Assembly: GCA_030765065.1 (NCBI GenBank) | Contig: CM060990.1 | Coordinates: forward strand, 277,601,341-277,665,340 | DNA: 64,000 nt | From: Deroplatys truncata | Taxonomy: Eukaryota > Arthropoda > Insecta > Mantodea > Mantidae | Direction: 5' to 3' | Part shown: piece by piece, positions 21,877-52,020 of the stretch | How the letters are laid out: the number at the start of each line of letters is the position of its first letter | How positions within the stretch are numbered: the first letter of the stretch is position 1 | Notes under the pieces: model-generated | What the model was told of the DNA's origin: nothing | Databases searched by the model: none | The model's input: the letters and a program-made list of their open reading frames with translations, nothing else | Position numbers and translations under genes: made by a program

Positions 21877-23112
21877 CACTATGTAATCAAAAGTATCCGG
21901 ACACCCCCACAAACATAAGTTTTTCATCTTAGGTGCATTGTGCTGCCACCTACTGCTTGGTACTCATTATCCGCGACCTCAGTAGTCATTAGACATCGTG
22001 AAACAGCAGAATGGGAAGCTCCGTGGAACTCACGGACTTCGACCGTGGTCAGGTGATTGGGTGTCACTTGTGTCAGAAGTCTGTACGCGAGATTTCCACA
22101 CTCCTAAATATCCCTAGGTCCACTGTTTCTGATGTGATAGTGAAGTGGAAACGTGAAGGGACATGTACAGCACAAAAGCGTACAGGCCGACTTCGTCCGT
22201 TGACTGACAGAGACCGCCGACGTTTGAAGAGTGTCGTAAATAGTAATAGGCAGACATCTATCCAGACCATCACACAGGAATTCCAAACTGCATCAGGATC
22301 CACTCCAAGTACTACGACAGTTAGGCGTGAGGTGAGAAACCTTGGATTCCATGGTCGAGCGGCTGCTCATAAGCCACACATCACGCAGGAAAATGCCAAA
22401 CGACGCCTCGCTTGGTGTAAGGAGCGGCAGCATTACACGATTGAACAGTGGCAAAACGTTGTGTGGAGTGACGAATCACGGTACACAATATGGCGATCCG
22501 ATGGCAGGGTGTGGGTATGGTGAATGCCAGGTGAACGTCATCTGCCAGCGTGTGTAGTGCCAACAGTGAAATTCGGAGGTGGTGGTGTTATGGTGTGGTC
22601 GTGTTTTTCCTGGAGGGGGCTTGCACCCCTTGTTGTTTTGCGTGGCACAATCACAGCGCAGACCTACATTGATATTTTAAGCACCTTCTTGCTTCCCACT
22701 GTTGAAGAGCAATTCGGGGATGGCGATTGCATCTTTCAACACGATCGAGCACCTGTTCATACTGCATGGTATGTGGCGGAGTGGTTACACGACAATAACA
22801 TCCCTGTAATAGACTGGCCTGCACAGAGTCCTATAGAACACCTTTGGGATGTTTTGGAACACCGACTTCGTGTCAGGCCTCACCGACCTACATCAATACC
22901 TCTCCTCAGTTCCATACTCTGTGAAGAATGGGCTGCCATTCCCCAAGAAACCTTCCAGCACCTGATTGAAAGCATTCCTGCGAGAGTGAACGCTGTCATC
23001 AAGGCTAAGGGTGGGCCAACACCATATTGACTTCCAGCATTACCGATGGAAGGCACCACGAACTTGTACGTCATTTTCAGCCAGGTGTCCGGATAGTTTT
23101 GATCACATAGTG
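21877..23112 (+). mobile_element. Tc1 transposon with TIRs and TA duplication
   Basis: TA at 21,875-21,876 is followed by CACTATGTAATCAAAAGTAT and then CCGGACACC. The other end is GGTGTCCGG, then ATAGTTTTGATCACATAGTG, then TA at 23,113-23,114. The ~29-bp TIRs differ at only a few positions and the total length of 1,236 bp is typical of a compact Tc1 element. One transposase gene fills the interior. Confidence 0.93.
22011..23030 (+). pseudogene. Tc1 transposase, DD34E type, one stop and a 4-codon gap
   Basis: The ATG at 22,011 opens a paired helix-turn-helix DNA-binding region: DFDRGQVIGCHLCQKSVREI, then STLLNIPRSTVSDVI, and a second HTH about residues 60-110. Catalytic motifs follow: VVWSDESRY (first Asp), [11 protein letters not shown] (second Asp) and [11 protein letters not shown] (Glu). 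The frame is continuous to the TAA after GGPTPY at 23,030, apart from one in-frame TGA at 22,521-22,523 just before [20 protein letters not shown]. Relatives have DLNP between SP and IEHLW; here those four codons are missing, so the second Asp and Glu are 30 instead of 34 residues apart. The copy is therefore young but almost certainly inactive. Confidence 0.92.
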
Positions 23113-36634: not shown

Positions 36635-37846
36635 CAGGAAATCGTTACTTGCTATTGGCTATGTATTATTTCACCAAAAGGCTGGAGGTTTATGCGATTC
36701 CCAATCAGGAGGCTTTGGTTGGGGCTAAATCACTTAACAACTTCTTCTGCCGGTGCAGCATCCCCTGGAAGCTTCACAGTGATTAAGGGATGAACTTTGA
36801 ATCCAACTTTATGCAAGAGATTTCCAACGCCTCGGGACACTCAAGACCCGTACCACCCCCTTCATCCATAGTCAGAAGGAATGGTGGAGCGTTATATCAA
36901 GACAATCGGGAGGACCTTCGGAAATTGGTATCCAACAACCAGCGAGATCGGGGTGTGCACGTGTCATTATTCCTCCTGGCCTACCAGCATGTGTACACGA
37001 ATCCAGTGGAATGACACCGGCCAACATGGTATTCAGATGGGAGCTATGGTTAGCATGTGATCTGTTATTCAGCATGTCTCCTAATGCTGATCAGCTGGCA
37101 GCGGATTATGTTGGGACGCTAACAGACAGGCTAGAACACGTTCACTATCTCGCCAGGGAGCACCTGAAACTGGCAAGTGACCGGATGAAGGCATGCTATG
37201 ACCTTCTGGTGAACAGTGCCGGATTTCAGGAGACTGGCCTCGTGTGGTTCTACTGTCACAAGAGGACTAAAGAGAAATCGCCGAAGCTGCAATGTTCCTT
37301 GGATGGCAAATTATAGGGTAATCACCCATATCAACGATGCGGTATACCGCATTTGGCGTCAACCTCGAGGGAAGCTGATGGTGGTGCATCTTGATCAGTT
37401 TGATCCATATCACGAGACTGCTTGAGACGATCAGCTCTGAGGGAGTATGTGATGCAGCTATAGGCCTCATTTATTGGGTAGAAGGTGCCTGCTGGTTGGA
37501 GCGGTAAAGAGAGATAAATGTGCAGAGTAGTGATATCACCCTACGTAACTTCCAGCAGAAGCACCATCGAGATAGCCAGATTCTACAGGAAGCTTCTTTC
37601 CTCTCTCTTGTGACCATTTCAGAAACTCTTATATATAATAAGCATATAATCGAGCATGCTCATGACTGCTGCTACTGTGAGAGATTACAGAAGTCTTGTG
37701 ATCAACAACTCAGTGAGCGAAACAGAGAGGAAGAGGTGACTTCGCACGGTCACAGAAGTGAACTGACAGTGAAAGTGAACTAAATCACATCAATAAAGTG
37801 GCAGTGAGAACAATATTTAATGCTTAATTATACATGTAACAATATT
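36635..37846 (+). mobile_element. outer Gypsy element, right integrase part and 3' LTR
   Basis: Directly after LTR 2 the plus strand continues with an integrase core (YAIPNQEALVGAKSL, then SEGMVERYIKT) and its C-terminal region (KVVHLD-type block, about 37,375-37,425). A purine-rich GAGGGAGTA precedes TGTGATGCAG at about 37,447, the likely 3' LTR, with TATATATAA near 37,630 and AATAAA near 37,793; it ends near 37,846. Together with 23,941-24,207 it is one Gypsy copy of the type that gave the 19-21 kb element, opened by the LTR 1-LTR 2 insertion. Broken in several places. Confidence 0.65.
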
Positions 37847-37869
37847 GTACTTTCCTTGACATATTCTAT

Positions 37870-37991
37870 GTTCATGGGTCCCTATGGCCACCAGAAAAGT
37901 CACAGAATACAATCAAATCTAAATATCAGTCTGCTAAATCCATAGAAACAGCATTTCGTCGTAGTTTCTACTATTGAGAAGAAGCTGGCAC
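37870..37991 (+). mobile_element. left half of an LOA/R1-type LINE
   Basis: The plus strand reads SAKSIETAFR and then VVSTIEKKLALK, the region just before the first catalytic block of R1/LOA-type reverse transcriptases (normally followed by a GVFLDIEGAFD-like motif). That motif occurs at 50.43 kb, immediately beyond the right end of the Kolobok-like element. The LINE was therefore the insertion target. Confidence 0.6.
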
Positions 37992-38429
37992 TTAAAGGAG
38001 AACGAAACACAAAAATGAATATTTCATTCACCACATTAGTTTATTTGTCATCAGGAATAAATAACAATGCACACAGTTTCACCATCCCAAGGTGAATGGT
38101 TATCAGGTTACGACCTGTTGTGGAGTTGACGCGTGACATCACAAGAGCCACACTACACTCAGACAAGGCATACGCAGCACAAATGTTTTAAATCACTAAC
38201 AAGTTTATGTGTTAATTTCACTAGATGTTCATAACTTCTGTGAATAACAAAGAGTAGAGCTAAAGCTAGCCAATCACTTTTCATAACCCAGTTAATACCT
38301 ACTACGTAATAAACAGTAGAACAACATCTGCTTTGAAAATGAGTGAACGTGGTATCCAATGTTATCAGTTGAACCCCCCCCCCCCCAAAAAAAGAGCAAT
38401 TTTGAAGATTTACACCATTCTGAACCGAT

Positions 38430-38666
38430 TGAGACAGTGTGAACACCGAAAACCATGCTAGTTCCATCCATTTGTGTAAGGGTAAGGAATGTATACCAAT
38501 AGATAATGATGAGGAAAGTGTGTGTTGCTCGGACTATGAAAACACAAAATTGGTGAAGGGTGATTTTCTCTGTATCACAAAGCATTCTAATTTTCACAAA
38601 TTAATTATAGATTCTGACGCTTTGAATATTGCGAGTCATAATTTAGCATTAAAAACAAAAAGATGA
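38430..38666 (+). CDS. P2X7-receptor intracellular (ballast)-like domain, partial
   Basis: The frame holds CKGKECIPIDNDEESVCC, then GDFLCITKHSNFHKLIIDSD with ALNIASHNLAL, and stops at 38,664-38,666. The order C-x4-C-x-P, ESVCC, CIT-H, then a hydrophobic helix matches the zinc-binding cytoplasmic domain at the C terminus of P2X7 receptors, which also occurs as stand-alone or transposon-linked domains in invertebrates. The usual W-C-x-C-G start is only partly conserved. No ATG precedes it in frame; the block probably starts at an acceptor (GAGACAG, about 38,437). It lies tail-to-tail with the transposase, inside the same TIRs. Function unknown; no channel domain is nearby, so it is not a receptor gene. 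Confidence 0.6.
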
Positions 38667-38999
38667 GCTAAAAAGAAATAACTTGCCGCCAACAATCCTG
38701 CTAATACGACTTGGCAGTATTCCTGCTACAAACAGTTTACTGGATTAATTCATAGACTGGACACACAAGAGAGTTGTCATATATCATGTATAGTACTTAG
38801 TATTAGAAATGCTTTTCCAAAACCCAGCGAAATATATGTAGGCTTCACTAATAAACACACAAATTAAAAATAGTAAGTTTTAAATTCAACCATTATTTAT
38901 TATTATTATTTAAAATTTTATAATGTGTCTGTGATGAACCTTCTTATGTTGAATGAAAACGTGAGAAGTGCTTCAATCATAGTAACTCTAATGGAGATC

Positions 39000-40135
39000 G
39001 AAGCATGGGAGCTAAATTCTTCAGTAGTGACGGATCAATTGCCGTGTCTGGTAATGGATCGACACTAAATGCGTGCAGAGATTTTTTTATTTCATGCACT
39101 ACAAGCAGCTTCCATTTTTCGTTAGATCCCTCATATTTATTTTTCATGATCCAAGACTCAGATGCTTTGAAGTACTGGGTTTTGACACCAGTATTTTTGT
39201 TTAATTTTATTTACATTGAAATTGTGATCTAGCACTGCTGTCATGAATCTAAGTTAGAGGCCATTATGTGAAAAATTTATTATTTTCGGAGGATATCTGA
39301 GATGAAGACTGTGGTAACTTTCTAAATTGTCACTATGTATATAATGTCGAATATGAGCCAAATTGTTCAAGAAGATGCTATCCAAAATAATTTTCTTCAG
39401 AGCACGATAGGAGTTTGATTTGTATTTAATTCATAAATTATTTCTTTGATCTTCTTTCAACAATTCATCATGTTCACAGGATTTCCATTCACTGTTTTCA
39501 GGCCATCTATATTAATTTTTTATATTGAAGAATTGATGTGAATTTTTTAATTAATATGGTACCGTTCTCATTACAGTTTTGCGCAGCCCACCATAATAAA
39601 TGGTTATTTATACTGGCTTTCCATTCCATCAGCTCTGGGTATTCTTTTTTTCTATTACTTAAATTTTTTTCATTAAGACTTTTGAACAAATACCATACGT
39701 CAAATTCATGCTCAACTTCCGGATACTGAGTTTTTAACAGGTATCTTACACCTTTATGTCTGTCAGAGAGAAAAACTTCAATTCTACGCATCTCCTGTTT
39801 TGCAAGCAACATCATTACATTGTCACAAGCAGCCTTCTCCACAGCGCCTTTCACCATATCTCTTTGAACAAGTTCAAAATCAATCATTTTGCAGGAATTA
39901 AATCCATGACAGAATAGACCAAATATTTGGACGAAAATCCTGGGGAGTCATACTGCCCATCCCCTGCCAACCACATAGGTATACCACAACCTTTTAATGA
40001 ATTCAAGTTCTTTTTTCTTTCCTGAATCCAAAATGCTTTAACAACTGGTGCTGCCATGTTTCGAATGGTTTTATCGAATGTACGCTTGGAAACTTTGCCA
40101 AACCCAGTGATTTGCAGGGCTTAAATTGCTGGAAC
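39000..40135 (-). pseudogene. Kolobok-type transposase catalytic core, decayed
   Basis: Minus-strand order: FGKVSKRTFDKTIRNMAAPV, then LAGDGQYDSPGFSSKYLVYS (first Asp region, about 39,960); IDFELVQRDMVKGAVEKAAC and IEVFLSDRHKGVRYLLKTQY (second Asp, about 39,770) in an intact 126-codon frame (39,887-39,507); then YRALKKIILDSIFLNNLAHI, HSDNLESYHSLHLRY (Glu, about 39,290) and LDHNFNVNK. Related proteins read GDG-CDSPG-SAKY, ATDRH, HTG-LE-YH and AVLDHN. The third part needs a change of frame and has stops, so it is not functional. A likely acceptor (TTGTTCCAG) precedes the block at about 40,130. Confidence 0.7.
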
Positions 40136-41045
40136 AATAATAATCATATAATAATAAAGAACTTGCTATTAAAGCACTTCCTTCTGGTTTCTTTCCTGAT
40201 AAATTTTGAGAGTTTCAAGTGAATGTATACTACCACAATAACAAATTGTTTTAACACATAGCATTGTCCCTTTAATGTAAAAAGAAATTGTTTTGACTTC
40301 ATTTCTACAAAAAGACATACCTTGAAAAATAAAAGTAGAGATGTCCAAGTAACAATGAAATATTTTGCTGTAGCTTCATTTCCATGTCGTCGTATGAGAG
40401 CCAGAGGAACGTATCTCCAAAAATGGGTTTTTTGGCTTTTTCAATATATGTTATCACAGTAATGAGCTCTATGTTGTGTCAAAACGACGTATCTGCAGCT
40501 CTTCTCATGGCAAAAATAAGATGCTGCGTATGCCCAAGTTATAACTTTATTTAAGAGACAGATAGACGTATTGGCACTTACGTTCTTCTGTCTCGAAGAA
40601 GCGTGTCTCAATTTTAGGAATAGCAAACGTAACAACACTTACGTTCTTCTGACTCCTAACTTCATAACCTAATTTTGGAAATACACTTTCACACACCAGA
40701 GACAACTATCTGCTCATTTTGCATATAATTTTCCTGCACGTGTACGCCATTTTCTGTGTAACTGAAATAGAACTATAGCTTGTCCAGCAGCTAATGACAC
40801 TGGTGTATTAATTGCTGCATTCGTCTAAGCACCAGTTCTTGGAACTGTTTACAAGGTTTCAAGCTATTGCATTTCCCTTGCAAGTATATTAGGTGGTGGA
40901 AAGACAATAGATGTATTACTGTTATATGCATTGTCAGCCTAATAATGTTGCTTTCATTGTCACACTGCATTTTGTTTATTAGTTTATTGGAGGACTCAGT
41001 GTGAAGAGGTTAATGTTAGTGCGCACTGTGTGTTAGCTATAGAAA

Positions 41046-41472
41046 TGACATCAAGAGGAAGGATGATGGTTTATCTAGTGATGAATCAAAATTACCGCAA
41101 CAAAAGGAATTATTCAACACCGGATAAAGGTAGGTCAAGTTGCTATTGTTTTTAACTATGAGGTACTCTTTCATGAGATATAGATCTTTAATTTGATTGC
41201 AATGGTTGAACTTGGTTCCTATTTATTTATTTCACAAGTTAGAGAAGAAAGGAATGGCAAAACCTCATCTGTATTACAAAACAAGTATGATATGGACAGA
41301 CTGCCAGAGTTATGTGAAGAAGAGTGTAGTGAATTCAAAGTGTTTAGCTCGGGTTCATCAGATAATTACATATCCGAAAGTAACACAGATTCTTCATCAC
41401 CATCTCCGAGGCAAAAGAAAAGGAGAGCTGCGATCCAACTGAAAGCGCCGCAAGAAAAACCAGCTAGTAAGT
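41046..41472 (+). CDS. two small spliced exons of an unrecognised acidic protein
   Basis: Exon 1 (41,046-41,127) reads MTSRGRMMVYLVMNQNYRNK then RNYSTPDK and ends at GTAGGT. Exon 2 follows an acceptor (TTTCACAAG, 41,238), reads an acidic stretch (LPELCEEECSEFKVF, SSGSSDNYISESNTDSSSPS) and then a basic one (RQKKRRAAIQLK), and ends at a GTAAGT donor (about 41,472). This is the style of the N terminus of transposon-encoded insect proteins like that at 33.8 kb. No downstream exon was found. It lies within the Kolobok-like element, opposite to the transposase. Confidence 0.4.
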
Positions 41473-41689
41473 AAAAGTTTGATTTTCCATGTACGTCCTG
41501 TTTAACATTTCAAATACTAATTTATCCACCACAAATTATTTGAATGCATAGTTAAAGGAATATAATAACTGCTTTTTATGTGTACTCTAAGTGGAGTAGA
41601 GATTTTTCAATAAAGTTTGTATTACGTTACTGAAACATGAAAATTGCATTTAAAAATACCTTCTTTCAGCTCTCCTGTAAAATCGCTAA

Positions 41690-42004
41690 AATGGAGTTAC
41701 ATTCCTCTGATTCTCACACAGCGATGTATGGTGAAAGCTTTTTCTTCTTCCTTCTTGTTATCACTTGTATCAGAATCTGAAGTATCAGGTTTGTAGAAAC
41801 TTTCATTCAGCTTAGCTTGATCTTCCTTATCATTGTTTTTTAATAGATTTTTCAGGTTCCACCAATATATATTTCAGTACCTAGTTCACATTGTATTTCT
41901 GAATTCTTGGATTTTTCATCACGTTCTATTCTGAATTCTCTTTCAATACTTTTATCAGCATTGCCTTCTTTGTCAGTCTTATTGCAAGTAACACTATTGC
42001 ATAG
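41690..42004 (-). CDS. acidic exon of the Kolobok-like gene, split by the Penelope-like insertion
   Basis: On the minus strand an open frame runs from about 48,620 to 48,536 (LIDPSPFSFKSKQQRTEQYE). It resumes beyond the Penelope-like element from 42,004 (NSVTCNKTDKEGNADKSIER) to about 41,860, with one target-site copy counted. Further acidic codons follow (PDTSDSDTSDNKKEEEKAF, to about 41,700) in another frame. It lies between the THAP finger and the DDE core and probably encodes the linker. No domain recognised. Confidence 0.4.
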
Positions 42005-42060
42005 TTATAACTAATATGATTTTCCGGGTTGTTATGCCGTGGTCTGCTGAAGAAAGATTT

Positions 42061-42103
42061 CCCAGACGTTTCGTCCACAACTGCGGTGGACATCTTCAGT
42101 GGC
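42061..42103 (-). ncRNA. hammerhead ribozyme motif 1 (in inverted end)
   Basis: In minus sense: CTGAAGA core box, stem II GTCCAC/GTGGAC with a CGCAGTT loop, GAAAC box, then the GTC cleavage triplet, with CCA/TGG able to pair as the start of stem I. It is identical in sequence to motifs 2 and 3. Confidence 0.65.
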
Positions 42104-42180
42104 GCGGACGAAGTCTTCTCGGTGAAAGTATCGTAGCGTCTGATGCGTTGGCCGTTAGTGCCGCTCTCTTTATAGTGTGG

Positions 42181-43396
42181 ATTTACTAATTAGTTTTGAC
42201 GTTGTGTCTCTATTCACCATGGTTCCAGTACAAGAAACTCTGAAGTTGTTACATCCCATCTTCTCTGATGATATCACTACACTTTTTCACCATGTCCTGA
42301 CTACCACTTATTTCCAGTGGAACCGGTCATTCTACGAGCAAATAGACGGTGTTGCCATGGGCAGCCCCCTTAGCCCTGTTGTGGCCAATTTCTTCATGGA
42401 GGCATTTGAGTCAAAGGCACTAAACTCAGCTCCACTCAAACCAACAGCCTGGTTCCGCTATGTGGATGACACCTTCGTCATCTGGCCCCATGGTGAACTA
42501 GCTCTTCAATATTTTTTGTTACATCTAAATAGCATCAATCAGCGTATACAGTTCACAATGGAACAAGAAAAGGATGGCCAACTAGCCTTTCTAGATGTAC
42601 TCGTTAGCAGGAAGGCTGACGGCACGCTGGGTCATACTGTCTACCGCAAACCCACACACACACAGACCGTTACCTTAACAAGAACTCCAACCACCATCCT
42701 AGACAAAAACGTGCTATGATTAAGACACTCGCAAACCGTGCTTCCCGTATTTGTGAACCACACTTACTTCCACAAGAAATCCGACACCTGGAAACAGCTC
42801 TACAATCAAATGGTTATTCAGTCCAAGAGGTGAGAAGAGCCTGCCGTCCGGCCAAGCCCCGACCGGTTACTCAGGACCAACCCAAAAGCAAGTCCATTGT
42901 CTTTCTGCCATATTTCAGAAATGTCACTGACCGTATTGAACGTATACTTCAACGTCATAACGTCAAAACAGTATTCAAACCTACAAGACAATTAAACAGC
43001 CTACTGCGCTCTTCCAAAGACCCCCGAGATCCCCTGTCATCGGCCGGTGTTTACCGTATTCCTTGTTCCTGTGGTTCAGTGTACATTGGTACCACACAGC
43101 GGAGCGCTAACACCAGACTTAGCGAACACAAAAGAAACTGCCGCCTGGGCCATACAGAAAAATCGGCAGTCGCCGAACATGCCATTGAAGCCGAGGGCGA
43201 ACACATTATTAGATTTCAGGACACCAACATTCTTTCCTCCATAAAGCATTACCATACCCGGCTACAACGCGAAGCAATAGAGATTTATAAACATCCCAAT
43301 AATTTCAATAGGAAAGAAGAAGCATTGAAACTCAACAGTGCTGTGCTGTGCTGTGCGTCAGATGGCAGGTTGAGGGCAACCCGATGGTGTGCTTAG
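42181..43396 (+). pseudogene. Penelope-like RT and GIY-YIG, 5'-truncated copy
   Basis: Starts inside the reverse transcriptase at LISFDVVSLFTMVPVQETLK and includes GSPLSPVVANFF and the catalytic YVDDTFVIW. It then continues in a second frame from 42,716 with the GIY-YIG endonuclease (GVYRIPCSCGSVYIGTTQRS). A Jockey LINE entered at 43,340, cutting the last codons of the endonuclease frame. Because the 5' half of the RT is absent, this copy cannot act alone. Confidence 0.9.
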
Positions 43397-45100
43397 GCGT
43401 GTACCTTCCCTAATTAGGGCTTTACCACGTAGTGACGGGATATGGGGGTTACAGGATGGCGGTTGTTCTTTAGGTAGGGGGAGAGAAAGGAGGTAACAAA
43501 GTTTGTTCCTCAACGGTAGCCGGTCATGGTGCAACTACCCTTGTGCACCGCTGGTGGTATGAATTTTGTAGTTATAAACATGTTGGGATTTTAATTTTGA
43601 AGTCCAAGCTACTCTTGAATGGATTGTATTGGAGTTCAGCTTTAGCTGCTGTTGGAATTACTCCGCTGTTACCGGATATGCCCGCAAGCCATGCGGGGAA
43701 GCCGGTGATGCCTCAAGCGGCGTATTCTGGGGTCATAATCCCCAAGAGACCTAACTAGGGCGCTCTGATGGTATGGCAACTGGTCGTAAAATTTTGCGGC
43801 CCGGCGCCTAATTTCATCCTCCACGTAAGGAAGAGATGAGGCTTCGTGAAGCAGTCTCACGGGAAAGGAGCGGTTTACACAATAGATGGCCCGAAGGCAC
43901 CTATTCTGTACCCGTTGCAGGAGCAGCAGGTTGGAATCTGCGGCCATGCCCCAGATCTCGCAGGCATAAAGCAGGAAGGGGATTATCAGCGCCCGAAAAA
44001 GGTGTAACTTTAAAGGGACAGGCATCTCAGACCCCAGCATCGGGTACAATGAAGCCGCAGCCCCATGTCCCCGACGCGCGACGTCCCCGACGTGTCCCCG
44101 AAAAGCTAGACCCTTATCTAACTTAACCCCCAGGTAGGAGATGGCATTTGTCCATTCTATCCTTCTTCCGAGATAGCTGAATGTGGGGAAGATTGCGGGA
44201 AAGCGGCGCTTGGTGAAGAGAATGGCGTGGCTTTTTGCCGGATTGATGGATAATCGCCAACGCCTGCACCACTCTTGGAGGAGGCGGAGGTGTCTCTGAA
44301 TGGGGTTGAAGGCTCTGTTTGGGTGTTTACTTGTACAATACAGGAGCACGTCATCAGCGTACTGTGCCATGTTGACGTGCTGCTCTGTGGGTAGATCGGC
44401 CACATATACACTAAAAAGTGTGGGGGATAGAACAGAACCTTCGGGGACTCCGCCTCGTATTGGCCTTAGTGTAGATTTGTGTCCCGCTACCGAAACAACA
44501 AAAGTGCGGTGTTTTAAATATGTGTGTAGCAGGTGTATTAAGTGTGTAGGGAGCTCCAGTTGGATGAGCTTTTTGAGGAGCCCCGCATGCCAGGTCGTCG
44601 AGAAGGCGTTCTCGACATCCAGTGAAACTGCGGCGGTGTAAGCCCTGTCCTGGAAACCCAGGGCAGCCGCTTCCACCACGCGCAGCAATTGCTGGGAGGT
44701 CGAGTGCCCAGGACGGAAGCCGAACTGATGTGGTGGGATGGCTCGAATGTCCCCTAAGGTGGGAGACAAGCGGTTAAGAATGGTCCTTTCAAACACTTTT
44801 GAAAGGACAGAGAGGAGGCTAATGGATCTGTAATTGGCAGGATGTACCGGATCTTTCCCCGGCTTCAATATGCAGATAACCCGAGCCTCTCTCCACTCGC
44901 GTGGAAAGTGACTTAGGGCGAAGCACATATTGAAGACCCTGGTGAGAAAGAGCACGGCCCGGAAGGGAAGGCGTCGTAGCATGGCGGGTGTAAGCCCGTC
45001 AGGCCCCGGTGCCCTTTTGGGGTTGAGACGCCGGAGTGCGCCTTGGATTTCTGAAGGTCTTATGACGGGATATCGATCCGCATCGTCGGGGGGACGTCGA
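43340..45100 (-). mobile_element. Jockey-clade LINE, 5'-truncated, 12-bp TSD
   Basis: Inserted in minus orientation between AAACTCAACAGT copies (43,328-43,339 and 45,101-45,112). One long frame covers RT: LNPKRAPGPDGLTPAMLRRL, PANYRSISLLSVLSKVFERT, FGFRPGHSTSQQLL, VPEGSVLSPTLFSVYVADLP, AQYADDVLLY. It ends in a typical Jockey C-terminal tail (KFYDQLPYHQSALVRSLGDY), stopping at 43,669. The endonuclease half is missing by 5' truncation. About 330 bp of 3' UTR end in GCACAGCACAGCACAGC instead of poly-A. No stops within ~475 codons, so insertion is recent. The first codons of the open frame (upstream of 45,100) are Penelope sequence. Confidence 0.9.
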
Positions 45101-45272
45101 AAACTCAACAGTAACTGGCATCTAGTCATAAAAAACAAGAAAGGTCATACAAAACCGAAAAACACTGCGAGCCAATCAGAAGAGAGCAACAACACAGCCG
45201 GCGCCAGCCCCCTCATACCAGCGGGCCAATCAGCAGAGAGCGCCCACACTATAAAGAGAGCGGCAACTGAAA

Positions 45273-45716
45273 CTCACATTCTATGTTTCCTTTCAGGACG
45301 AACCCACACCAACAGAGACGACGGCACCGACCCGACACGTTAGTAAGCATGGTCACTTCTACTCTATCACTAAGCACGACACCTAACACAAAATTCCACC
45401 TGCATGAGCATGAATACCTCACTAACATACACCAGGCACCAGCACTGGGCCACGAGCCAAGTGATGGCCCTGGATCCACCTCTGCCTGTCTACCCCCTGG
45501 TAGGCCGGCGTCTTTCGTAGAGTTACCCACTAACCCCAGGTTGCGCAAGCGGTACCTGGCACCACTAGCACCACTCCCTCTCCCATCCATTAGCTGTAGT
45601 TAGTGCATGGTAGGGGAGGCGATGTAGATCCCTTTCGGATGATCGTCACCTGGTGTGGCGGAGGAGGGGCCACACCATAAAAAAAAAAAAAATAAAAAAA
45701 AAAAAAAAAAAAAGAG
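45273..45716 (+). repeat. 446-bp retroposed insertion with A-rich tail
   Basis: Compared with the second Penelope copy (48,330-48,350), about 446 bp are extra here, ending in AAAAAAAAAAAAAATAAAAA and more A. The insert starts ACTGAAACTCACATTCTATG, is GC-rich, and has a ~107-codon plus-strand frame rich in Pro and Thr without a recognised domain. It could be a LINE 5'+3' fusion, a SINE or a processed transcript. No clear target duplication. Confidence 0.55.
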
Positions 45717-45768
45717 CCAACGCATCTGCCAACGCTGCGATACTTTCACCGAGAAGACTTCGTCCGCG

Positions 45769-45811
45769 CCACTGAAGATGTCCACCGCAGTTGTGGACGA
45801 AACGTCTGGGA
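45769..45811 (+). ncRNA. hammerhead ribozyme motif 2 (overlaps an ORF start)
   Basis: CTGAAGA (45,772-45,778), stem II GTCCAC/GTGGAC, GAAAC, GTC (45,804-45,806), with the A and T flanking the core positioned to pair as the first base pair of stem I. The short ACGT in GAAACGTC is self-complementary, so stem III could form between two monomers, as in dimeric hammerheads. Hammerheads in Penelope terminal repeats are established knowledge; this assignment is by motif. Confidence 0.7.
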
Positions 45812-45900
45812 AATCTTTCTTCAGCAGACCACGGCATAACAGCCCGGAAAATCATATTAGTTATAATTGTGACTCCGGCCGTGAAAACCTACGTTCTTAC

Positions 45901-47562
45901 ATGACTCGCCTCTACGGGGAGGAGGCATACCGTCTGATCCGTCGACTAGAAGTGCTACGCAAACAAAAATCTTCTTTGCTGTGTTCACTTGCCTTTCTTC
46001 TACGCTGCCGAGACTCGGGAATTATTCCTAAATTCCTACGACAGAAACGACATTTCACCACCGCTGCCGCCAACCGCATTTACAATCGCTCTGAACGGGC
46101 CTTGCTCCGAGAACGCATCCATCAGACCAGACGACAACTCTCTGCCAACAATAGTCAACTACTCATCTTACATCTTCAAGTAAGTAACTCACTACACAGT
46201 TTTGATTGGGACAACACTGACAGAATCACCTACGGCTCTATGACATACAATCACAACAGCATGACCACTCGTCACAAGAAGAAGTTTGATGGCCTTACTG
46301 CCTCCATCAAACCGCCGACTACTCTCAACCACTGCCGCACGGTAGTGAACTTATCTGATCACCAGCTGTCACCTGCTGAAACGTCACTCCTTGCTAAAGG
46401 AGGTAACTACGCTGTTGTCACTCCAACGTTGCCAGTTGAAGACATCATTTCTCACATTGAAGCAGGAATACGAGTTCTGCCAAGGCTTGCAGCTGATGAA
46501 ATTCGCCGGGAATCTGCCAGGGTTCTCGAGAAGGCCAAACCTCCTACCAGTAATTTAACCAATCAAGAGAGAACTGCATTAAATAAGCTGAACTCCAACC
46601 GAGACATTATTGTTTGCTCAGCGGACAAGGGTAATGCCACAGTTATTCTTAACCAGCAAGACTATCAACAGAAAATCTCTGAACTCCTGCAACCAGCGAC
46701 CTACCATAAGATTAAACGTGATCCGACAGCCCGTATTCTACGGAAAACTAATCTTTTGATCAAGAACTCATCGCTTTCGAAGGAAGACAAACGCCGCCTT
46801 ACCAAGTCCGAAGCTCAGCCGCCTAGACTTTACGGGCTACCCAAGATCCATAAACCAGATGTTCCGCTCAGGCCCATTGTTAGTGGTATTGGTTCTCCCA
46901 CATACGACATAGCTAAATACCTAACCGGTCTTCTACAACCCCATGTCGGCTTGTCCGACTCTTTCATCAAAGACTCTACTCATTTCATTCAAATTCTCCG
47001 CAACCTCAAATTGCTACCTAAGGATTTACTAATTAGTTTTGACGTTGTGTCTCTATTCACCATGGTTCCAGTACAAGAAACTCTGAAGTTGTTACATCCC
47101 ATCTTCTCTGATGATATCATTACACTTTTTCACCATGTCCTGACTACCACTTATTTCCAGTGGAACCGGTCATTCTACGAGCAAATAGACGGTGTTGCCA
47201 TGGGCAGCCCCCTTAGCCCTGTTGTGGCCAATTTCTTCATGGAGGCATTTGAGTCAAAGGCACTAAACTCAGCTCCACTCAAACCAACAGCCTGGTTCCG
47301 CTATGTGGATGACACCTTCGTCATCTGGCCCCATGGTGAACTAGCTCTTCAATATTTTTTGTTACATCTAAATAGCATCAATCAGCGTATACAGTTCACA
47401 ATGGAACAAGAAAAGGATGGCCAACTAGCCTTTCTAGATGTACTCGTTAGCAGGAAGGCTGACGGCACGCTGGGTCATACTGTCTACCGCAAACCCACAC
47501 ACACACAGACCGTTACCTTAACAAGAACTCCAACCACCATCCTAGACAAAAACGTGCTATGA
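45901..47562 (+). CDS. Penelope-like reverse transcriptase
   Basis: The frame is open from 45,655, but the first part is A-tail and ribozyme sequence. An ATG at 45,778 lies inside the hammerhead; the ATG at 45,901 (MTRLYGEEAYRLIRRLEVLR) is the more likely start, giving 553 codons. A basic N-terminal region (about residues 1-180) is followed by Penelope RT motifs: IIVCSADKGNATVILNQQDY, PPRLYGLPKIHKPDVPLRPI, LLISFDVVSLFTMVP, GVAMGSPLSPVVANFFMEAF, YVDDTFVIW and DGQLAFLDVLV. Penelope RTs are related to telomerase RT and copy the element at a nicked target. The stop overlaps the next start (ATGA at 47,559-47,562). Intact and >99% like the partial copy upstream. Confidence 0.9.
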   Translation: MTRLYGEEAYRLIRRLEVLRKQKSSLLCSLAFLLRCRDSGIIPKFLRQKRHFTTAAANRIYNRSERALLRERIHQTRRQLSANNSQLLILHLQVSNSLHSFDWDNTDRITYGSMTYNHNSMTTRHKKKFDGLTASIKPPTTLNHCRTVVNLSDHQLSPAETSLLAKGGNYAVVTPTLPVEDIISHIEAGIRVLPRLAADEIRRESARVLEKAKPPTSNLTNQERTALNKLNSNRDIIVCSADKGNATVILNQQDYQQKISELLQPATYHKIKRDPTARILRKTNLLIKNSSLSKEDKRRLTKSEAQPPRLYGLPKIHKPDVPLRPIVSGIGSPTYDIAKYLTGLLQPHVGLSDSFIKDSTHFIQILRNLKLLPKDLLISFDVVSLFTMVPVQETLKLLHPIFSDDIITLFHHVLTTTYFQWNRSFYEQIDGVAMGSPLSPVVANFFMEAFESKALNSAPLKPTAWFRYVDDTFVIWPHGELALQYFLLHLNSINQRIQFTMEQEKDGQLAFLDVLVSRKADGTLGHTVYRKPTHTQTVTLTRTPTTILDKNVL

Positions 47563-48398
47563 TTAAGACACTCGCAAACCGTGCTTCCCGTATTTGTGAA
47601 CCACACTTACTTCCACAAGAAATCCGACACCTGGAAACAGCTCTACAATCAAATGGTTATTCAGTCCAAGAGGTGAGAAGAGCCTGCCGTCCGGCCAAGC
47701 CCCGACCGGTTACTCAGGACCAACCCAAAAGCAAGTCCATTGTCTTTCTGCCATATTTCAGAAATGTCACTGACCGTATTGAACGTATACTTCAACGTCA
47801 TAACGTCAAAACAGTATTCAAACCTACAAGACAATTAAACAGCCTACTGCGCTCTTCCAAAGACCCCCGAGATCCCCTGTCATCGGCCGGTGTTTACTGT
47901 ATTCCTTGTTCCTGTGGTTCAGTGTACATTGGTACCACACAGCGGAGCGCTAACACCAGACTTAGCGAACACAAAAGAAACTGCCGCCTGGGCCATACAG
48001 AAAAATCGGCAGTCGCCGAACATGCCATTGAAGCCGAGGGCGAACACATTATTAGATTTCAGGACACCAACATTCTTTCCTCCATAAAGCATTACCATAC
48101 CCGGCTACAACGCGAAGCAATAGAGATTTATAAACATCCCAATAATTTCAATAGGAAAGAAGAAGCATTGAAACTCAACAGTAACTGGCATCTAGTCATA
48201 AAAAACAAGAAAGGTCATACAAAACCGAAAAACACTGCGAGCCAATCAGAAGAGAGCAACAACACAGCCGGCGCCAGCCCCCTCATACCAGCGGGCCAAT
48301 CAGCAGAGAGCGCCCACACTATAAAGAGAGCGGCACTAACGGCCAACGCATCAGACGCTGCGATACTTTCACCGAGAAGACTTCGTCCGCGCCACTGA
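47559..48398 (+). CDS. Penelope-like GIY-YIG endonuclease
   Basis: Starts in an ATGA overlap with the RT frame. After a basic linker (MIKTLANRASRICEPHLLPQ) the GIY-YIG nuclease reads GVYCIPCSCGSVYIGTTQRS with a CPC-x-CG-like cysteine cluster, then RLSEHKRNCR and LQREAIEIYKHPNNFNRKEE (catalytic Glu region). In the family the nuclease nicks target DNA and is fused to the RT in one protein; here it lies in a separate, overlapping frame in both copies. The last ~60 codons run into the terminal repeat (VIKNKKGHTKPK onward). 279 codons. Confidence 0.88.
   Translation: MIKTLANRASRICEPHLLPQEIRHLETALQSNGYSVQEVRRACRPAKPRPVTQDQPKSKSIVFLPYFRNVTDRIERILQRHNVKTVFKPTRQLNSLLRSSKDPRDPLSSAGVYCIPCSCGSVYIGTTQRSANTRLSEHKRNCRLGHTEKSAVAEHAIEAEGEHIIRFQDTNILSSIKHYHTRLQREAIEIYKHPNNFNRKEEALKLNSNWHLVIKNKKGHTKPKNTASQSEESNNTAGASPLIPAGQSAESAHTIKRAALTANASDAAILSPRRLRPRH
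48314..48330 (+). promoter_or_regulatory. TATA-like box in Penelope terminal repeat
   Basis: CCACACTATAAAGAGAG occurs at the same place upstream of the ribozyme in each terminal repeat (about 45,249, 48,314, and inverted near 42,175). Its constant spacing before the hammerhead suggests a core promoter. No other evidence. Confidence 0.35.
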
Positions 48399-48434
48399 AG
48401 ATGTCCACCGCAGTTGTGGACGAAACGTCTGGGA
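48392..48434 (+). ncRNA. hammerhead ribozyme motif 3
   Basis: Same motif as at 45.77 kb: CTGAAGA at 48,395-48,401, stem II, GAAAC, GTC at 48,427-48,429. It lies in the 3' terminal repeat of the complete copy, after the endonuclease frame. Confidence 0.7.
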
Positions 48435-48639
48435 AATCTTTCTTCAGCAGACCACGGCATAACAGCCCGGAAAATCATATTAGTTATAATTGTGACTCCG
48501 GCCGTGAAAACCTACGTTCTTACACTATTGCATAGCTCAGAAACTATGGTTTCATGATTTCTAGCCTCATATTGTTCTGTTCTTTGTTGTTTGCTCTTGA
48601 ATGAAAATGGTGAAGGATCAATTAGAAGCTGCAAATATT

Positions 48640-49726
48640 AACTACCTAATATAAATGTTAAATGGCTGGAAAAAGTTTATGAGATGATTGTGGAGGAAAA
48701 TATGATGTATGGTATAGAAATATGGGGATTAGATAGAGGATGGGAAAGTATAGATGTGGTGCACAGGATGTTTTGTAGAGAAATACAAGGGCTATCGAAG
48801 TCAATTGTAAGACAGGTAGCATAATTAGAGATGCACAGGGTGGCAACTAAGGGGAAGATAATGGAAAGAGCTTTGAAATTTTGGTTCAGAACTTTAAATC
48901 TAGGAAAAAGTAATGTGTTAAGACAATGTATTGAATATCAAGAGAATAGCTTAATGAATGATGGATGCGTAAGTAAATTACGGAACATTTTGGAGAAAAA
49001 TGGGTTAGGAGATATGTGGAGAAGGAGAGAAAAATTTTTTTGGAAAAAGGCGAGGAAAAGACTGGAAGATATAGAAATACAAATCATGTTCAGTGAGATT
49101 GCCGAAAAGAGCTCATTAGTTTGTTATAGGCCAATGAAAAATACATGGGGTAGGGAAAAATATATAGACATCGTAAATAAAGAAAAGAGAGAATCTATTG
49201 CATGGGTAAGAACCGGAACATGGAGGCTAAAAGGGCTAAGACAGGGTATTCCTCAGAACCAATGTCCGATATGTGGTGGTAATGAAGACATTGAACACAT
49301 AGTATTTAAGTGCCAAGGAACAGAAAACTGGAGAAAAGAATTTTTTAATAAGCAGTGGTTGAAGGGGGATAGAAATACACTTATGATTGAAATGATATGC
49401 AAGGACGCTAGAAGCATTGGACAGTTTTTGTGTAAAGTAAAAAATAAATGGCTTTGGACAGTGGAAAGAGAAAAGTAAGAGGTAGCGCATCTTACTTTGA
49501 ATGGAAAACTATACTGAATATGTGATGGTTAAGTAACCAATAAGTGAAAAGTGAAAAATGAGTGGAAATGGCACATGAAAAAAACTGAAAAAAAAAACCA
49601 AGATAATTTATTGACAAGAAATTGTAAAATGTAAATAAACTGTAGTGATTGTCTACTGAATGAGTGACCAGGGTCAAAGTGCAGTAGACAATCAAATTTG
49701 TAAAACTCTTAGCACAATAAAGCATG

Positions 49727-49787
<61 letters not shown>
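48640..49787 (+). mobile_element. 5'-truncated LINE with (ACT)n tail
   Basis: The plus strand carries the C-terminal part of a LINE protein: MMYGIEIWGLDRGWESIDVV, then from 48,831 a 215-codon open frame (LKFWFRTLNLGKSNVLRQC, IAWVRTGTWRLKGLRQGIPQ) with a C-terminal zinc knuckle, CPICGGNEDIEHIVFKC, near 49,270-49,320. The 3' UTR ends AATAAAGCATG followed by ACT repeats (49,729-49,787), a microsatellite tail typical of some LINE clades. It sits in the Kolobok-like element between the THAP and acidic exons. The clade is not certain. Confidence 0.75.
49729..49787. repeat. (ACT)n microsatellite, LINE tail
   Basis: About 19 uninterrupted ACT units directly after an AATAAA-containing 3' UTR. Confidence 0.95.
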
Positions 49788-49837
49788 ATTGTCTTGCTAG
49801 AACTTGATATCTGGAAATTATCTTCATTTTTCCTTAT

Positions 49838-50127
49838 AGTAGGAAGAGTTCCAGGTTTTCATAAAGGCCCTCTGAAATTTTCATCCGGCATAAGCTGCTT
49901 TTTTTAATAACGGTGTCTGTTCACAATCTGTGACCTTAAAATGGAAGGAACATAAACGTGAACCAGGACCAGGCAAAAATTCTTTTCCTTTTGCAAAATT
50001 CTACCCATATCCTACATCTTTTGGGAGATTTGTCTCTATTTGGAAATGCATGAAAATGAGTTCCCTTATCTATTCCCTTCTCACATTATAGCCATATTGC
50101 ACAACGTTGAGACATTTTATTTTCCAT
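49838..50127 (-). pseudogene. THAP zinc finger, N terminus of the Kolobok-like transposase
   Basis: On the minus strand MSQRC starts near 50,114 and continues CEKGIDKGTHFHAFPNRDKS, then RCRIWVEFCKRK. In the next frame follow SRLCSFHFKVTDCEQTPLLK and KAAYAG. This is the THAP pattern: Cys pair, HAFP, W-x-x-x-C-x-R, C-S-x-HF. There is one stop inside the first Cys spacing and one frame change. It lies just inside the right TIR, the expected place for the start of a minus-strand transposase gene. Confidence 0.65.
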
Positions 50128-50433
50128 AATATTACATTGTTTGTATAATACTAAACTGACTCATTAACACCATCACCAAAACACCACCACAAAGTAAACT
50201 ACCAACAAGAACAATTTTTGAAAACAATTACTGCACGTGCAGCAATGACTGACTTGTGATCTCCCAACTGCTTCCAGTGCACGGCTGGCTCTGATGATGT
50301 ATAAGGTGGTTATTATTTCGCTTGTTAGTAATAACGGTGTGGCGGAGTAAAAAAACAATGTTACCACTGCATTTTACAGGCCATATCCTTCATTCAGGAA
50401 GAAACACGATGTTTGTGTTTTGTTCCCCTTTAA

Positions 50434-51175
50434 GAGATTGCCATTGGGGATTTCTCAATATGGAAGGTGCTTTTGACAAATCTCCTGTACGATGGTCCAG
50501 AAAGGTTTTCAAGATTATGATGTATTGCCAATTATTTGTAGGCAGATACATTTATGAGCCTTATGAGTCTCTTTGAGGAGGTGCTAGGTTGTCTTCCCCT
50601 AGGGCTATTCACAGAGGTGGGGATTCTCTCACTCTTTCGAAACCTGGTGGTAGATAGTGCATTGCAGTGACTAAATGAAGTTGGTTATTAACTACTAGCT
50701 TCTGGGATGAAATGTTTTGTCAGGGTAAAATGTTTTTGTATAATTTCTGAGATGTTTCAATCCCCACTCCAGAAAATATAGCATTGGTGTGATGAGAATT
50801 AACTACATCTATCAAAAAAAAACTATGGTGATATGCTTCAACAGAATGAGGGATATTAGGACCCTAATGGAAACAACTGGTGAGACACTAACCTATTCAT
50901 CACAAGGCAGATGTCTTGGCCTCCTTTTACACATGAGACATATCTGGAAGAACTATTTAGATCACATAACTACCATGGCTTGCAAGGTGTTTTAGGATCT
51001 GCAGAAGCACTTTTGATAGGACATGGTGGCTAAATACTGCTGTTGTACACTGGATATATAAGATTCTACTCTCATTTGCTGTACATATGCAGTTAGTGGC
51101 CAAGAGATACAGTTAAGAAATGCAAAGCTGAAATTAGGAAAGTTGTATAGGGTGTTTTGCATTGGGGATCATTCC
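50434..51175 (+). mobile_element. right half of the LOA/R1-type LINE
   Basis: Directly beyond the TTAA the plus strand reads FLNMEGAFDKSPVRWSRKVF (RT block A), then after decayed sequence WCDEN, KKTMVICFNRMRDIRTLMET and RCLGLLLHMRHIWKNYLDHI, and near 51,040 VVHWIYK and KKCKAEIRKV. Its missing upstream codons are at 37,870-37,991. Multiple frame changes; an old copy. Confidence 0.65.
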
Positions 51176-51179
51176 ATGG

Positions 51180-52020
51180 CATATCATCCAACAAAAGAGC
51201 ATTTTTGAACCTCACCATCTCCAAATTTTATGAAATTTTAAACATGTGTTCATACCAGGAAAGGAATTATGTTCATTATTTTTTTATATGTTTTAAACAT
51301 GCCGTTTAAGAGTTATAGCTGTCACAAAATGTCACAATTTGTCAAAACTTGCATCTGAATCAGTCTTAACATCCATACAGCTCAGGCTGTAATTATACTA
51401 GAGCTGTGGTTGAGTTCTCATTTTAAAGCTTATAAAGTAAGCGTTAGTTTGAAATGCAACACATGTTTTGGCAAAGAGAACAATTTTACATTTTGAAAAA
51501 GTATATATTTTGAGTTTATCAAAAGCCAGCAAGGTCTATGCTTTTGAAAAAAATATGGAATATTTATTCATATCTTTAAAGTATACAATGGAAATTTCAA
51601 AGTAGTATTTAAACGGGATCATACTGGAGTGAAATTCTTAAGATAAAAGAAACATAAAATGTGGAATACTTCTGCGTAAATACGTTGAATATGTTATGGC
51701 TAATAATGAATGTGTGATGAAGAATTAGCCTGTTCTGTATCTTTAATCACACACATTAGCTCATACTGAGATTACAGAACATGTTGCAACAAGCATTTGC
51801 TGGGGCAAATAACAATGATGTCAGCATGTCTCATGTTCCTGCTTGTCTAGCTTGCGTAACTCAGGCCTTATTTCTCTGTCCCAGTGACTCATTTATAACT
51901 GAGCTTTCATAGTGAATGGTTCAGTACACGTTTTACTGTGTTGTATTGTTATGTGAACAGTTACACAATTCCTTTCTTTTCTACAAAGTAAACATTGTGT
52001 ATCATAAAAACAAGACAATA
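51180..52020. other. AT-rich spacer, nothing recognised
   Basis: No coding signal or repeat supported. Confidence 0.35.

What the first reader, a model, noticed from the sequence alone, without database searches (positions are those of the whole stretch)
37992..50433. Kolobok-like transposon carrying a P2X7-ballast-like domain
Matching TIRs (AGGAGAACGAAACACAAA and AGGGGAACAAAACACAAA) each abut TTAA, 12.4 kb apart. Between them on the minus strand are a THAP finger and a DDE core with GDG-YDSPG, SDRH and LESYH motifs; on the plus strand is a block with the cysteine layout of the P2X7 intracellular domain. The P2X7 ballast domain has an unclear origin, so finding it physically inside the ends of a cut-and-paste element suggests how it could spread. 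The superfamily call and domain homology are by motif reading.
Basis: partly seen in the sequence, partly recalled or inferred. Interest (0 to 1): 0.82.

Follow-up and report, generated by a model that had tools for sequence, protein, structure and literature searches.

The report
Degraded Kolobok transposon encoding P2X7-like protein
This is a dead, insertion-riddled copy of a repeated jumping gene, probably from an arthropod, that carried both its transposase and a protein related to the tail of the P2X7 receptor, a pairing already reported from other animals in 2022.

Summary
The 12.4-kb segment is one dead copy of a repeated Kolobok DNA transposon. Uninterrupted copies in the same 4.29-Gb genome are about 3.0-3.3 kb; this one grew by three later insertions. 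Its 18-bp inverted repeats abut TTAA. Relatives of copy L018's insertion site that lack the element have a single TTAA in 4 of 6 rows. Of 19 copies with both ends, 17 carry the P2X7-like block, 17 transposase pieces and 16 both. The block is a true homologue of the P2X7 ballast: Pfam P2RX7_C E = 8.4e-4 in the window (below cut-off) and 3e-12 in sister copy L033. A profile of family frames finds four P2X7 sequences as its best PDB matches. Kojima and Bao (2022, PMC9587614, passages read) already reported this protein, KolX, in Kol0-lineage Kolobok elements and proposed it as the source of the P2X7 tail. Added here: a multi-copy family in a probable arthropod (TTAGG repeats).

The parts
37992..50433 (.). 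whole element with both TTAA target-site copies; a ~3.4-kb Kolobok copy enlarged by three insertions
37996..38013 (+). left terminal inverted repeat, AGGAGAACGAAACACAAA
   Evidence: shared by sister copies
50412..50429 (-). right terminal inverted repeat, AGGGGAACAAAACACAAA
38433..38666 (+). KolX, first part: P2X7-ballast-like block with CxxxxC, VCC and LCIT; ends in an in-frame TGA
   Evidence: Pfam P2RX7_C E 8.4e-4, 19.7 bits, below the curated cut-off of 23.5
38682..38867 (+). KolX, second part, same frame after a TAA stop: YKQF...ISCIVLSIRNAFPKPSEIYVGF
   Evidence: Pfam P2RX7_C positions 145-192, E 0.032 alone, below cut-off; the equivalent part of L036 gives E 5.4e-5
38977..39335 (-). transposase C-terminal part, with LESYHS (putative last catalytic E) near 39,311-39,325
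   Evidence: translations and tblastn to sister copies
39507..39947 (-). transposase core with SDRH and FDVWY (DxxH in sister copies)
   Evidence: Pfam MULE E 0.0052, below cut-off; sister copies
39884..40120 (-). transposase core with GDGQYDSPG (first catalytic D)
   Evidence: 150 of 150 scored genome candidates (of 2,323, the window included) match at E <= 1.1e-24
49840..50115 (-). degraded THAP finger of the transposase N-terminus (approximate limits)
   Evidence: frames; equivalent ORF in L018, Pfam THAP E 4.7e-10
40388..41723 (.). later insertion, type not identified, limits approximate; not aligned in any of the fetched copies
42005..48521 (.). later insertion: two Penelope-like pieces (by my reading) with a minus-strand non-LTR-type reverse transcriptase between them; flanked by the 14-bp duplication ACACTATTGCATAG
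48624..49786 (+). later insertion: non-LTR-type 3' end with a weak zf-RVT match and (ACT)n tail; AATT on both sides
   Evidence: (zf-RVT E 0.0036, below cut-off); 91% match in L016

Best explanation
A dead copy of a repeated Kolobok DNA transposon of the Kol0 type. Intact ancestors encoded two convergent genes: a THAP-DDE transposase read leftward from the right end, and KolX, a small zinc-cysteine protein homologous to the P2X7 cytoplasmic ballast, read rightward from the left end. The transposase moved the element by cut-and-paste into TTAA, which was duplicated (duplication shown; mechanism inferred from the superfamily). KolX most likely acted as an accessory protein of transposition (inferred). 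After insertion the copy decayed by point mutation and received three further insertions. Because the ballast block is the element's own gene, it spread wherever the element inserted; it is not host cargo picked up by one copy.
For: Of 19 copies with both ends (18 by TIR pattern, L021 by alignment), 16 hold both genes. Empty relatives of the L018 site have a single TTAA in 4 of 6 rows, where the copy has TTAA on both sides. THAP E 4.7e-10 in L018. KolX: P2RX7_C E 3e-12 in L033; 70 genome matches at E <= 1e-3, 0 of 14 control genomes; PDB profile search with P2X7 as the best four matches. Of the 30 best KolX loci, 27 are this family and 26 have transposase pieces within their 1.5-kb flanks. The published Kol0 group has the same two proteins.
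Against: No intact copy was seen among the loci read (I did not search for one). The longest open KolX frame (L033) has lost its CC pair, and THAP was scored in one copy only. No Kolobok transposase family matched in Pfam; the core rests on motifs and the published signature. No transposase tree was built, so the Kol0 lineage rests on KolX alone. The empty relatives of the L014 site do not read TTAA at the joint (CTAA in 4 rows, CAAA in 1, ATAA in 6 overlapping rows of one place). The role of KolX in transposition is untested. The 3-mismatch genome count of the TIR pattern (1579/1598) is below its reversed-pattern control (8951/9036), so it says nothing about copy number.
Confidence: 0.93

Rival explanations
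1. A Kolobok element captured a host ballast-domain gene once in this lineage, as passenger cargo.
For: Ballast-like proteins are reported as genes in diverse animals, with some conserved gene neighbours (PMC7016195, passages).
Against: The block is in 17 of 19 copies with both ends and also beside Kolobok-like transposase sequence in divergent loci of this genome (L032 by tblastn, L030 by eye). The same pairing is published for Kol0 in other phyla.
Confidence: 0.04
2. A piggyBac-type element, which also uses TTAA and in a few families carries a KolX-like protein.
For: TTAA target; [quoted passage not shown]
Against: The termini are 5'-AG...CT-3' (RR/YY), the stated Kolobok feature; a THAP finger is present; the transposase fragments scanned gave no piggyBac match in Pfam; and the cysteines that the piggyBac versions are said mostly to lack are present.
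Confidence: 0.02
3. A domesticated host gene: KolX kept for a cellular function, with transposon remains around it.
For: Domesticated relatives are proposed (P2X7 tail, Nanor; PMC9587614, passages). 14 of the 70 genome matches to the profile have no stop inside (hand count), though most of these cover only part of the domain.
Against: The window frame has two internal stops; 56 of the 70 genome matches contain at least one stop (hand count); nine sister copies are only 76-83% identical to each other in aligned parts, as expected of decaying transposons.
Confidence: 0.02

Closest known systems
Kolobok superfamily, Kol0 group with KolX (Kojima and Bao 2022, PMC9587614)
   Same: DDE transposase, TTAA target duplication, RR/YY termini, second protein homologous to P2X7 residues 476-595
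   Different: Here in a probable arthropod; the Kol0 list in the passage read names vertebrates, annelids, cnidarians and sponges (its figures and supplement were not seen). Copies read here are degraded.
P2X7 receptor cytoplasmic ballast (Pfam PF20478; PDB 6u9v, 9e3q and others)
   Same: About 120-residue block with the cysteine layout CxCxxC...CC...C...SC and the (P)SC...IR..FP ending
   Different: No P2X channel part seen in the fragments scanned; a stand-alone gene inside a transposon
Ballast/ZCD proteins of invertebrates and Nanor (Rump et al. 2020, PMC7016195)
   Same: Same domain, C-terminal in the protein; reported in Ixodes and in the bug Myzus persicae
   Different: Described there without mention of transposons (0 occurrences of 'transposon' or 'transposable' in the main text)

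Membership tests
Kolobok superfamily | TTAA target-site duplication | tested here: met
   L018 has TTAA on both sides; relatives of its site without the element show one TTAA in 4 of 6 rows (L001 at 89% over 207 bp, L016, L014, L052; not L030, L028). For the L014 site 0 of 11 rows read TTAA at the joint
Kolobok superfamily | Termini 5'-RR ... YY-3' | tested here: met
   AG...CT in the window. Of 19 copies, 18 have RR/YY at both ends (16 AG/CT; L022 and L027 have GG at one end); L028 has CG at its right end. The copies were found by a pattern that holds these bases
Kolobok superfamily | DDE core with DxxH between second D and E | tested here: inconclusive
   By motif, GDG..DSP-like in 9 of 19, FDVWH-like in 9 of 19, LESYHS-like in 4 of 19, wrong strand 0 of 19 each; the SDRH pattern is uninformative (10 of 19 on either strand). 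No profile or tree for Kolobok was available
Kolobok superfamily | THAP DNA-binding domain in the transposase | tested here: met
   PF05485 E 4.7e-10 in L018:557-1072+, the one copy scored; usual Kolobok motif per PMC6004289 passages
Kol0 lineage | Second protein KolX with P2X7 ballast similarity | tested here: met
Kol0 lineage | Transposase groups with Kol0 families in a tree | not tested
   No Kol0 reference sequences were held
KolobokP | Long terminal direct repeats | tested here: not met
   The repeat search of window 37000-51500 shows no long direct repeat joining the two ends
KolobokP | His-Me finger nuclease | tested here: inconclusive
   None among the Pfam matches of the fragments scanned; not every frame was scanned
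P2X7 receptor | Channel (P2X) part joined to the ballast | tested here: inconclusive
   None among the Pfam matches of the fragments scanned; not every frame was scanned

The most novel reading that the evidence does not exclude
KolX is not optional cargo but a required part of the Kolobok transposition cycle, kept in the same convergent layout in divergent families even within one arthropod genome. The P2X7 tail of vertebrates would then have inherited a zinc- and nucleotide-binding module that evolved as a transposition cofactor.
Probability: 0.3. Interest if true: 0.5.

Novelty: new member of a known kind. Interest (0 to 1): 0.22.

Why it matters
It independently supports, with many copies from one genome and an empty-site test, the published idea that the P2X7 ballast comes from a transposon gene, and places KolX-bearing Kolobok copies in a probable arthropod. 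Annotators should consider that P2RX7_C genes in such genomes may be transposon proteins, not receptor genes. It does not open a new question.

Tried and rejected
Copy counting by the 22-base TIR pattern with 3 mismatches was dropped: the reversed-pattern control is higher than the real count. Pfam scans of transposase core pieces gave nothing above cut-off. The motif census showed that the SDRH and CIT patterns are too loose (wrong-strand 10 and 9 of 19; C.C..C 3 of 19). The plus-strand ORF at 41184-41474 and the minus-strand ORF at 40441-40638, once suspected as transposon exons, lie in a stretch not aligned in the fetched copies and match no Pfam family. Rfam found nothing in the window at gathering thresholds. 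Species naming by COX1, a longer TIR-end pattern and a control for the C16 skew were asked for and not answered (server busy).
Full report
OBSERVATION. The left TIR (37996-38013) and right TIR (50412-50429, minus) are exact and each abuts TTAA. In the window alone two such matches, at up to 3 mismatches, occur in 6 of 100 shuffles, so the genome had to decide. The window lies in a 4.29-Gb assembly (G000:C16:277601341-277665340). From the places listed I fetched 20 regions: 11 where two listed TIRs faced each other (L009-L019) and 9 around single listed TIRs. Two facing TIRs at up to 2 mismatches are present in 18 of 20; L021 has a degenerate second end placed by alignment, and L025 has one end and the KolX side only. 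All 20 align to the window element.

ANATOMY. Uninterrupted sister copies are 3,049-3,294 bp (L010, L011, L012, L018). The window copy is 12.4 kb because of three stretches that sister copies lack: 40388 to about 41723 (unidentified); 42005-48521, two Penelope-like pieces with a minus-strand non-LTR-type reverse transcriptase between them, flanked by the 14-bp duplication ACACTATTGCATAG; and 48624-49786, a non-LTR-type 3' end with an (ACT)n tail and AATT on both sides. Penelope-like is my reading; Pfam shows only RVT_1 above its cut-off.

TARGET DUPLICATION. Copies L018 and L014 sit inside repeats. With their flanks joined around one TTAA, relatives of those repeats without the element align across the joint. 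For L018, 4 of 6 rows have a single TTAA there (L001 at 89% over 207 bp, L016, L014, L052); L030 and L028 differ at that point. For L014, 0 of 11 rows read TTAA: four read CTAA, one CAAA, and six overlapping rows of one place ATAA. They show the four bases only once, so they fit a 4-base duplication, but its TTAA sequence is shown by L018 alone. In the KolX-derived loci, which were not found by TIR, a TIR was recognised at up to 4 mismatches in 24 of 30, and TTAA stands next to it in 19 of those 24 (the pattern includes TTAA, which favours it somewhat).

TRANSPOSASE. Minus strand. THAP: Pfam PF05485 E = 4.7e-10 in L018:557-1072, corresponding to window about 49,840-50,115, where the frame is broken. 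Core: GDGQYDSPG, SDRH, FDVWY (DxxH in sister copies), LESYHS. By tblastn 17 of 19 copies hold transposase pieces (not L013, L021; in L022 and L027 only a 23-residue piece). A genome search with the 78-residue piece 39884-40120 scored 150 of 2,323 candidates, the window included; all 150 match at E <= 1.1e-24. Pfam gave only a sub-threshold MULE match for the core.

P2X7-LIKE BLOCK. Plus strand, 38433-38666 and 38682-38867, one frame with two stops between. Window scores are weak and below the curated cut-off (E 8.4e-4 and 0.032). Sister copies are clear: L033 3e-12, L029 4.1e-7, L031 3e-5, L036 second half 5.4e-5. The divergent loci give 2.5e-10 (L030) and 0.02 (L032). Genome search with PF20478: 70 matches at E <= 1e-3 from 150 scored of 555 candidates, best 1.2e-11; 0 of 14 control genomes match (which genomes these are was not shown). 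A profile from 16 KolX frames searched against 177,635 distinct PDB sequences gave four P2X7 sequences first (E 3.1e-4 to 5.4e-3, residues 475-593) and one unrelated match at E 1.3. The seven cysteines reported for the fold appear in sister copies; the window copy keeps six by my reading.

ASSOCIATION. Of 19 copies with both ends, 17 hold KolX (not L013, L019), 17 transposase (not L013, L021), 16 both. Of the 30 best KolX loci, 27 align to this family and 26 have transposase pieces within their 1.5-kb flanks; L030, L043, L045 and L057 have none by tblastn. L032 and, by eye, L030 carry a different Kolobok-like transposase next to KolX; L045 has a finger like that of a non-LTR element next door, by eye. 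So the block belongs to the element.

AGE AND STATE. Pairwise identity of nine copies is 76-83% in aligned parts: an old, decayed family. No intact copy was seen among the loci read; I did not search for one.

HOST. (TTAGG)n, six units, occurs 14,694 + 13,913 times against 11 + 2 for the reversed control, including an array within 15 kb of the end of C1. This points to an arthropod (general knowledge; no other telomere repeat was tested). The species was not determined.

LITERATURE. Kojima and Bao 2022 (PMC9587614: abstract and outline, first part of the text, section 10, and passages) state that KolX of the Kol0 group resembles P2X7 476-595, that the fold holds two zinc ions with seven cysteines, and that P2X7 arose by fusion with KolX. 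They also say that the ballast-like proteins reported from diverse animals had not been recognised as parts of Kolobok, so arthropod cases may already be covered; figures and supplements were not seen. Rump et al. 2020 (PMC7016195: passages) had found the domain in animals including Ixodes and Myzus persicae, without noting transposons. PMC6004289 (passages) gives THAP as a usual Kolobok domain. Searches: P2X7 + ballast + transposon 1 paper; Kolobok + P2X7 2 papers (the second, PMC9319628, seen in the listing only); Kolobok + transposase + THAP + TTAA 1 paper; KolX 1 paper; P2X purinoceptor 7 + transposable element + insect 0; at least two of Kolobok, KolX, arthropods, ballast 175 papers, 20 listed. 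I saw no report of an arthropod KolX element in these listings and passages.

MECHANISM. Shown: TIRs, TTAA duplication at one site, two genes, multi-copy dispersal. Inferred from the superfamily: cut-and-paste by the THAP-DDE protein. Inferred and unproven: KolX as an accessory factor.

VERDICT. Correct finding, already explained in print; a new member, probably from an arthropod, of a known kind.

Noticed in passing
G000 contig C16 (window's own contig): KolX matches (37 of 70, hand count) and transposase matches (76 of 150, hand count) pile up on C16, which is known only to be longer than 0.68 of 4.29 Gb; possible enrichment on one chromosome. Only the best candidates were scored, and the control search with another transposon did not complete.
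   Followed up: partly
G000:C7:303.30-304.39 Mb and contigs C114, C214, C352, C764, C78, C94, C770: Seven transposase matches within 1.1 Mb of C7, several of them 150-190 kb apart, and matches on unplaced contigs with like scores and frame lengths, suggesting a repeated array that carries a Kolobok copy.
   Followed up: no
window 42005-48521: Two Penelope-like pieces sharing exact stretches (300 nt at 100%), with a non-LTR-type reverse transcriptase on the minus strand (43669-45144) between them and inverted copies of a 181-nt piece near both outer ends: a nested or rearranged young insertion.
   Followed up: partly
window 22002-23030: Two adjacent plus-strand open stretches in one frame, parted by a stop, that read like a mariner/Tc1-type transposase (by eye; not scanned).
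   Followed up: no
window 40388-41723: Insertion of unknown type with a plus-strand serine-rich ORF (41184-41474); no significant Pfam match.
   Followed up: partly
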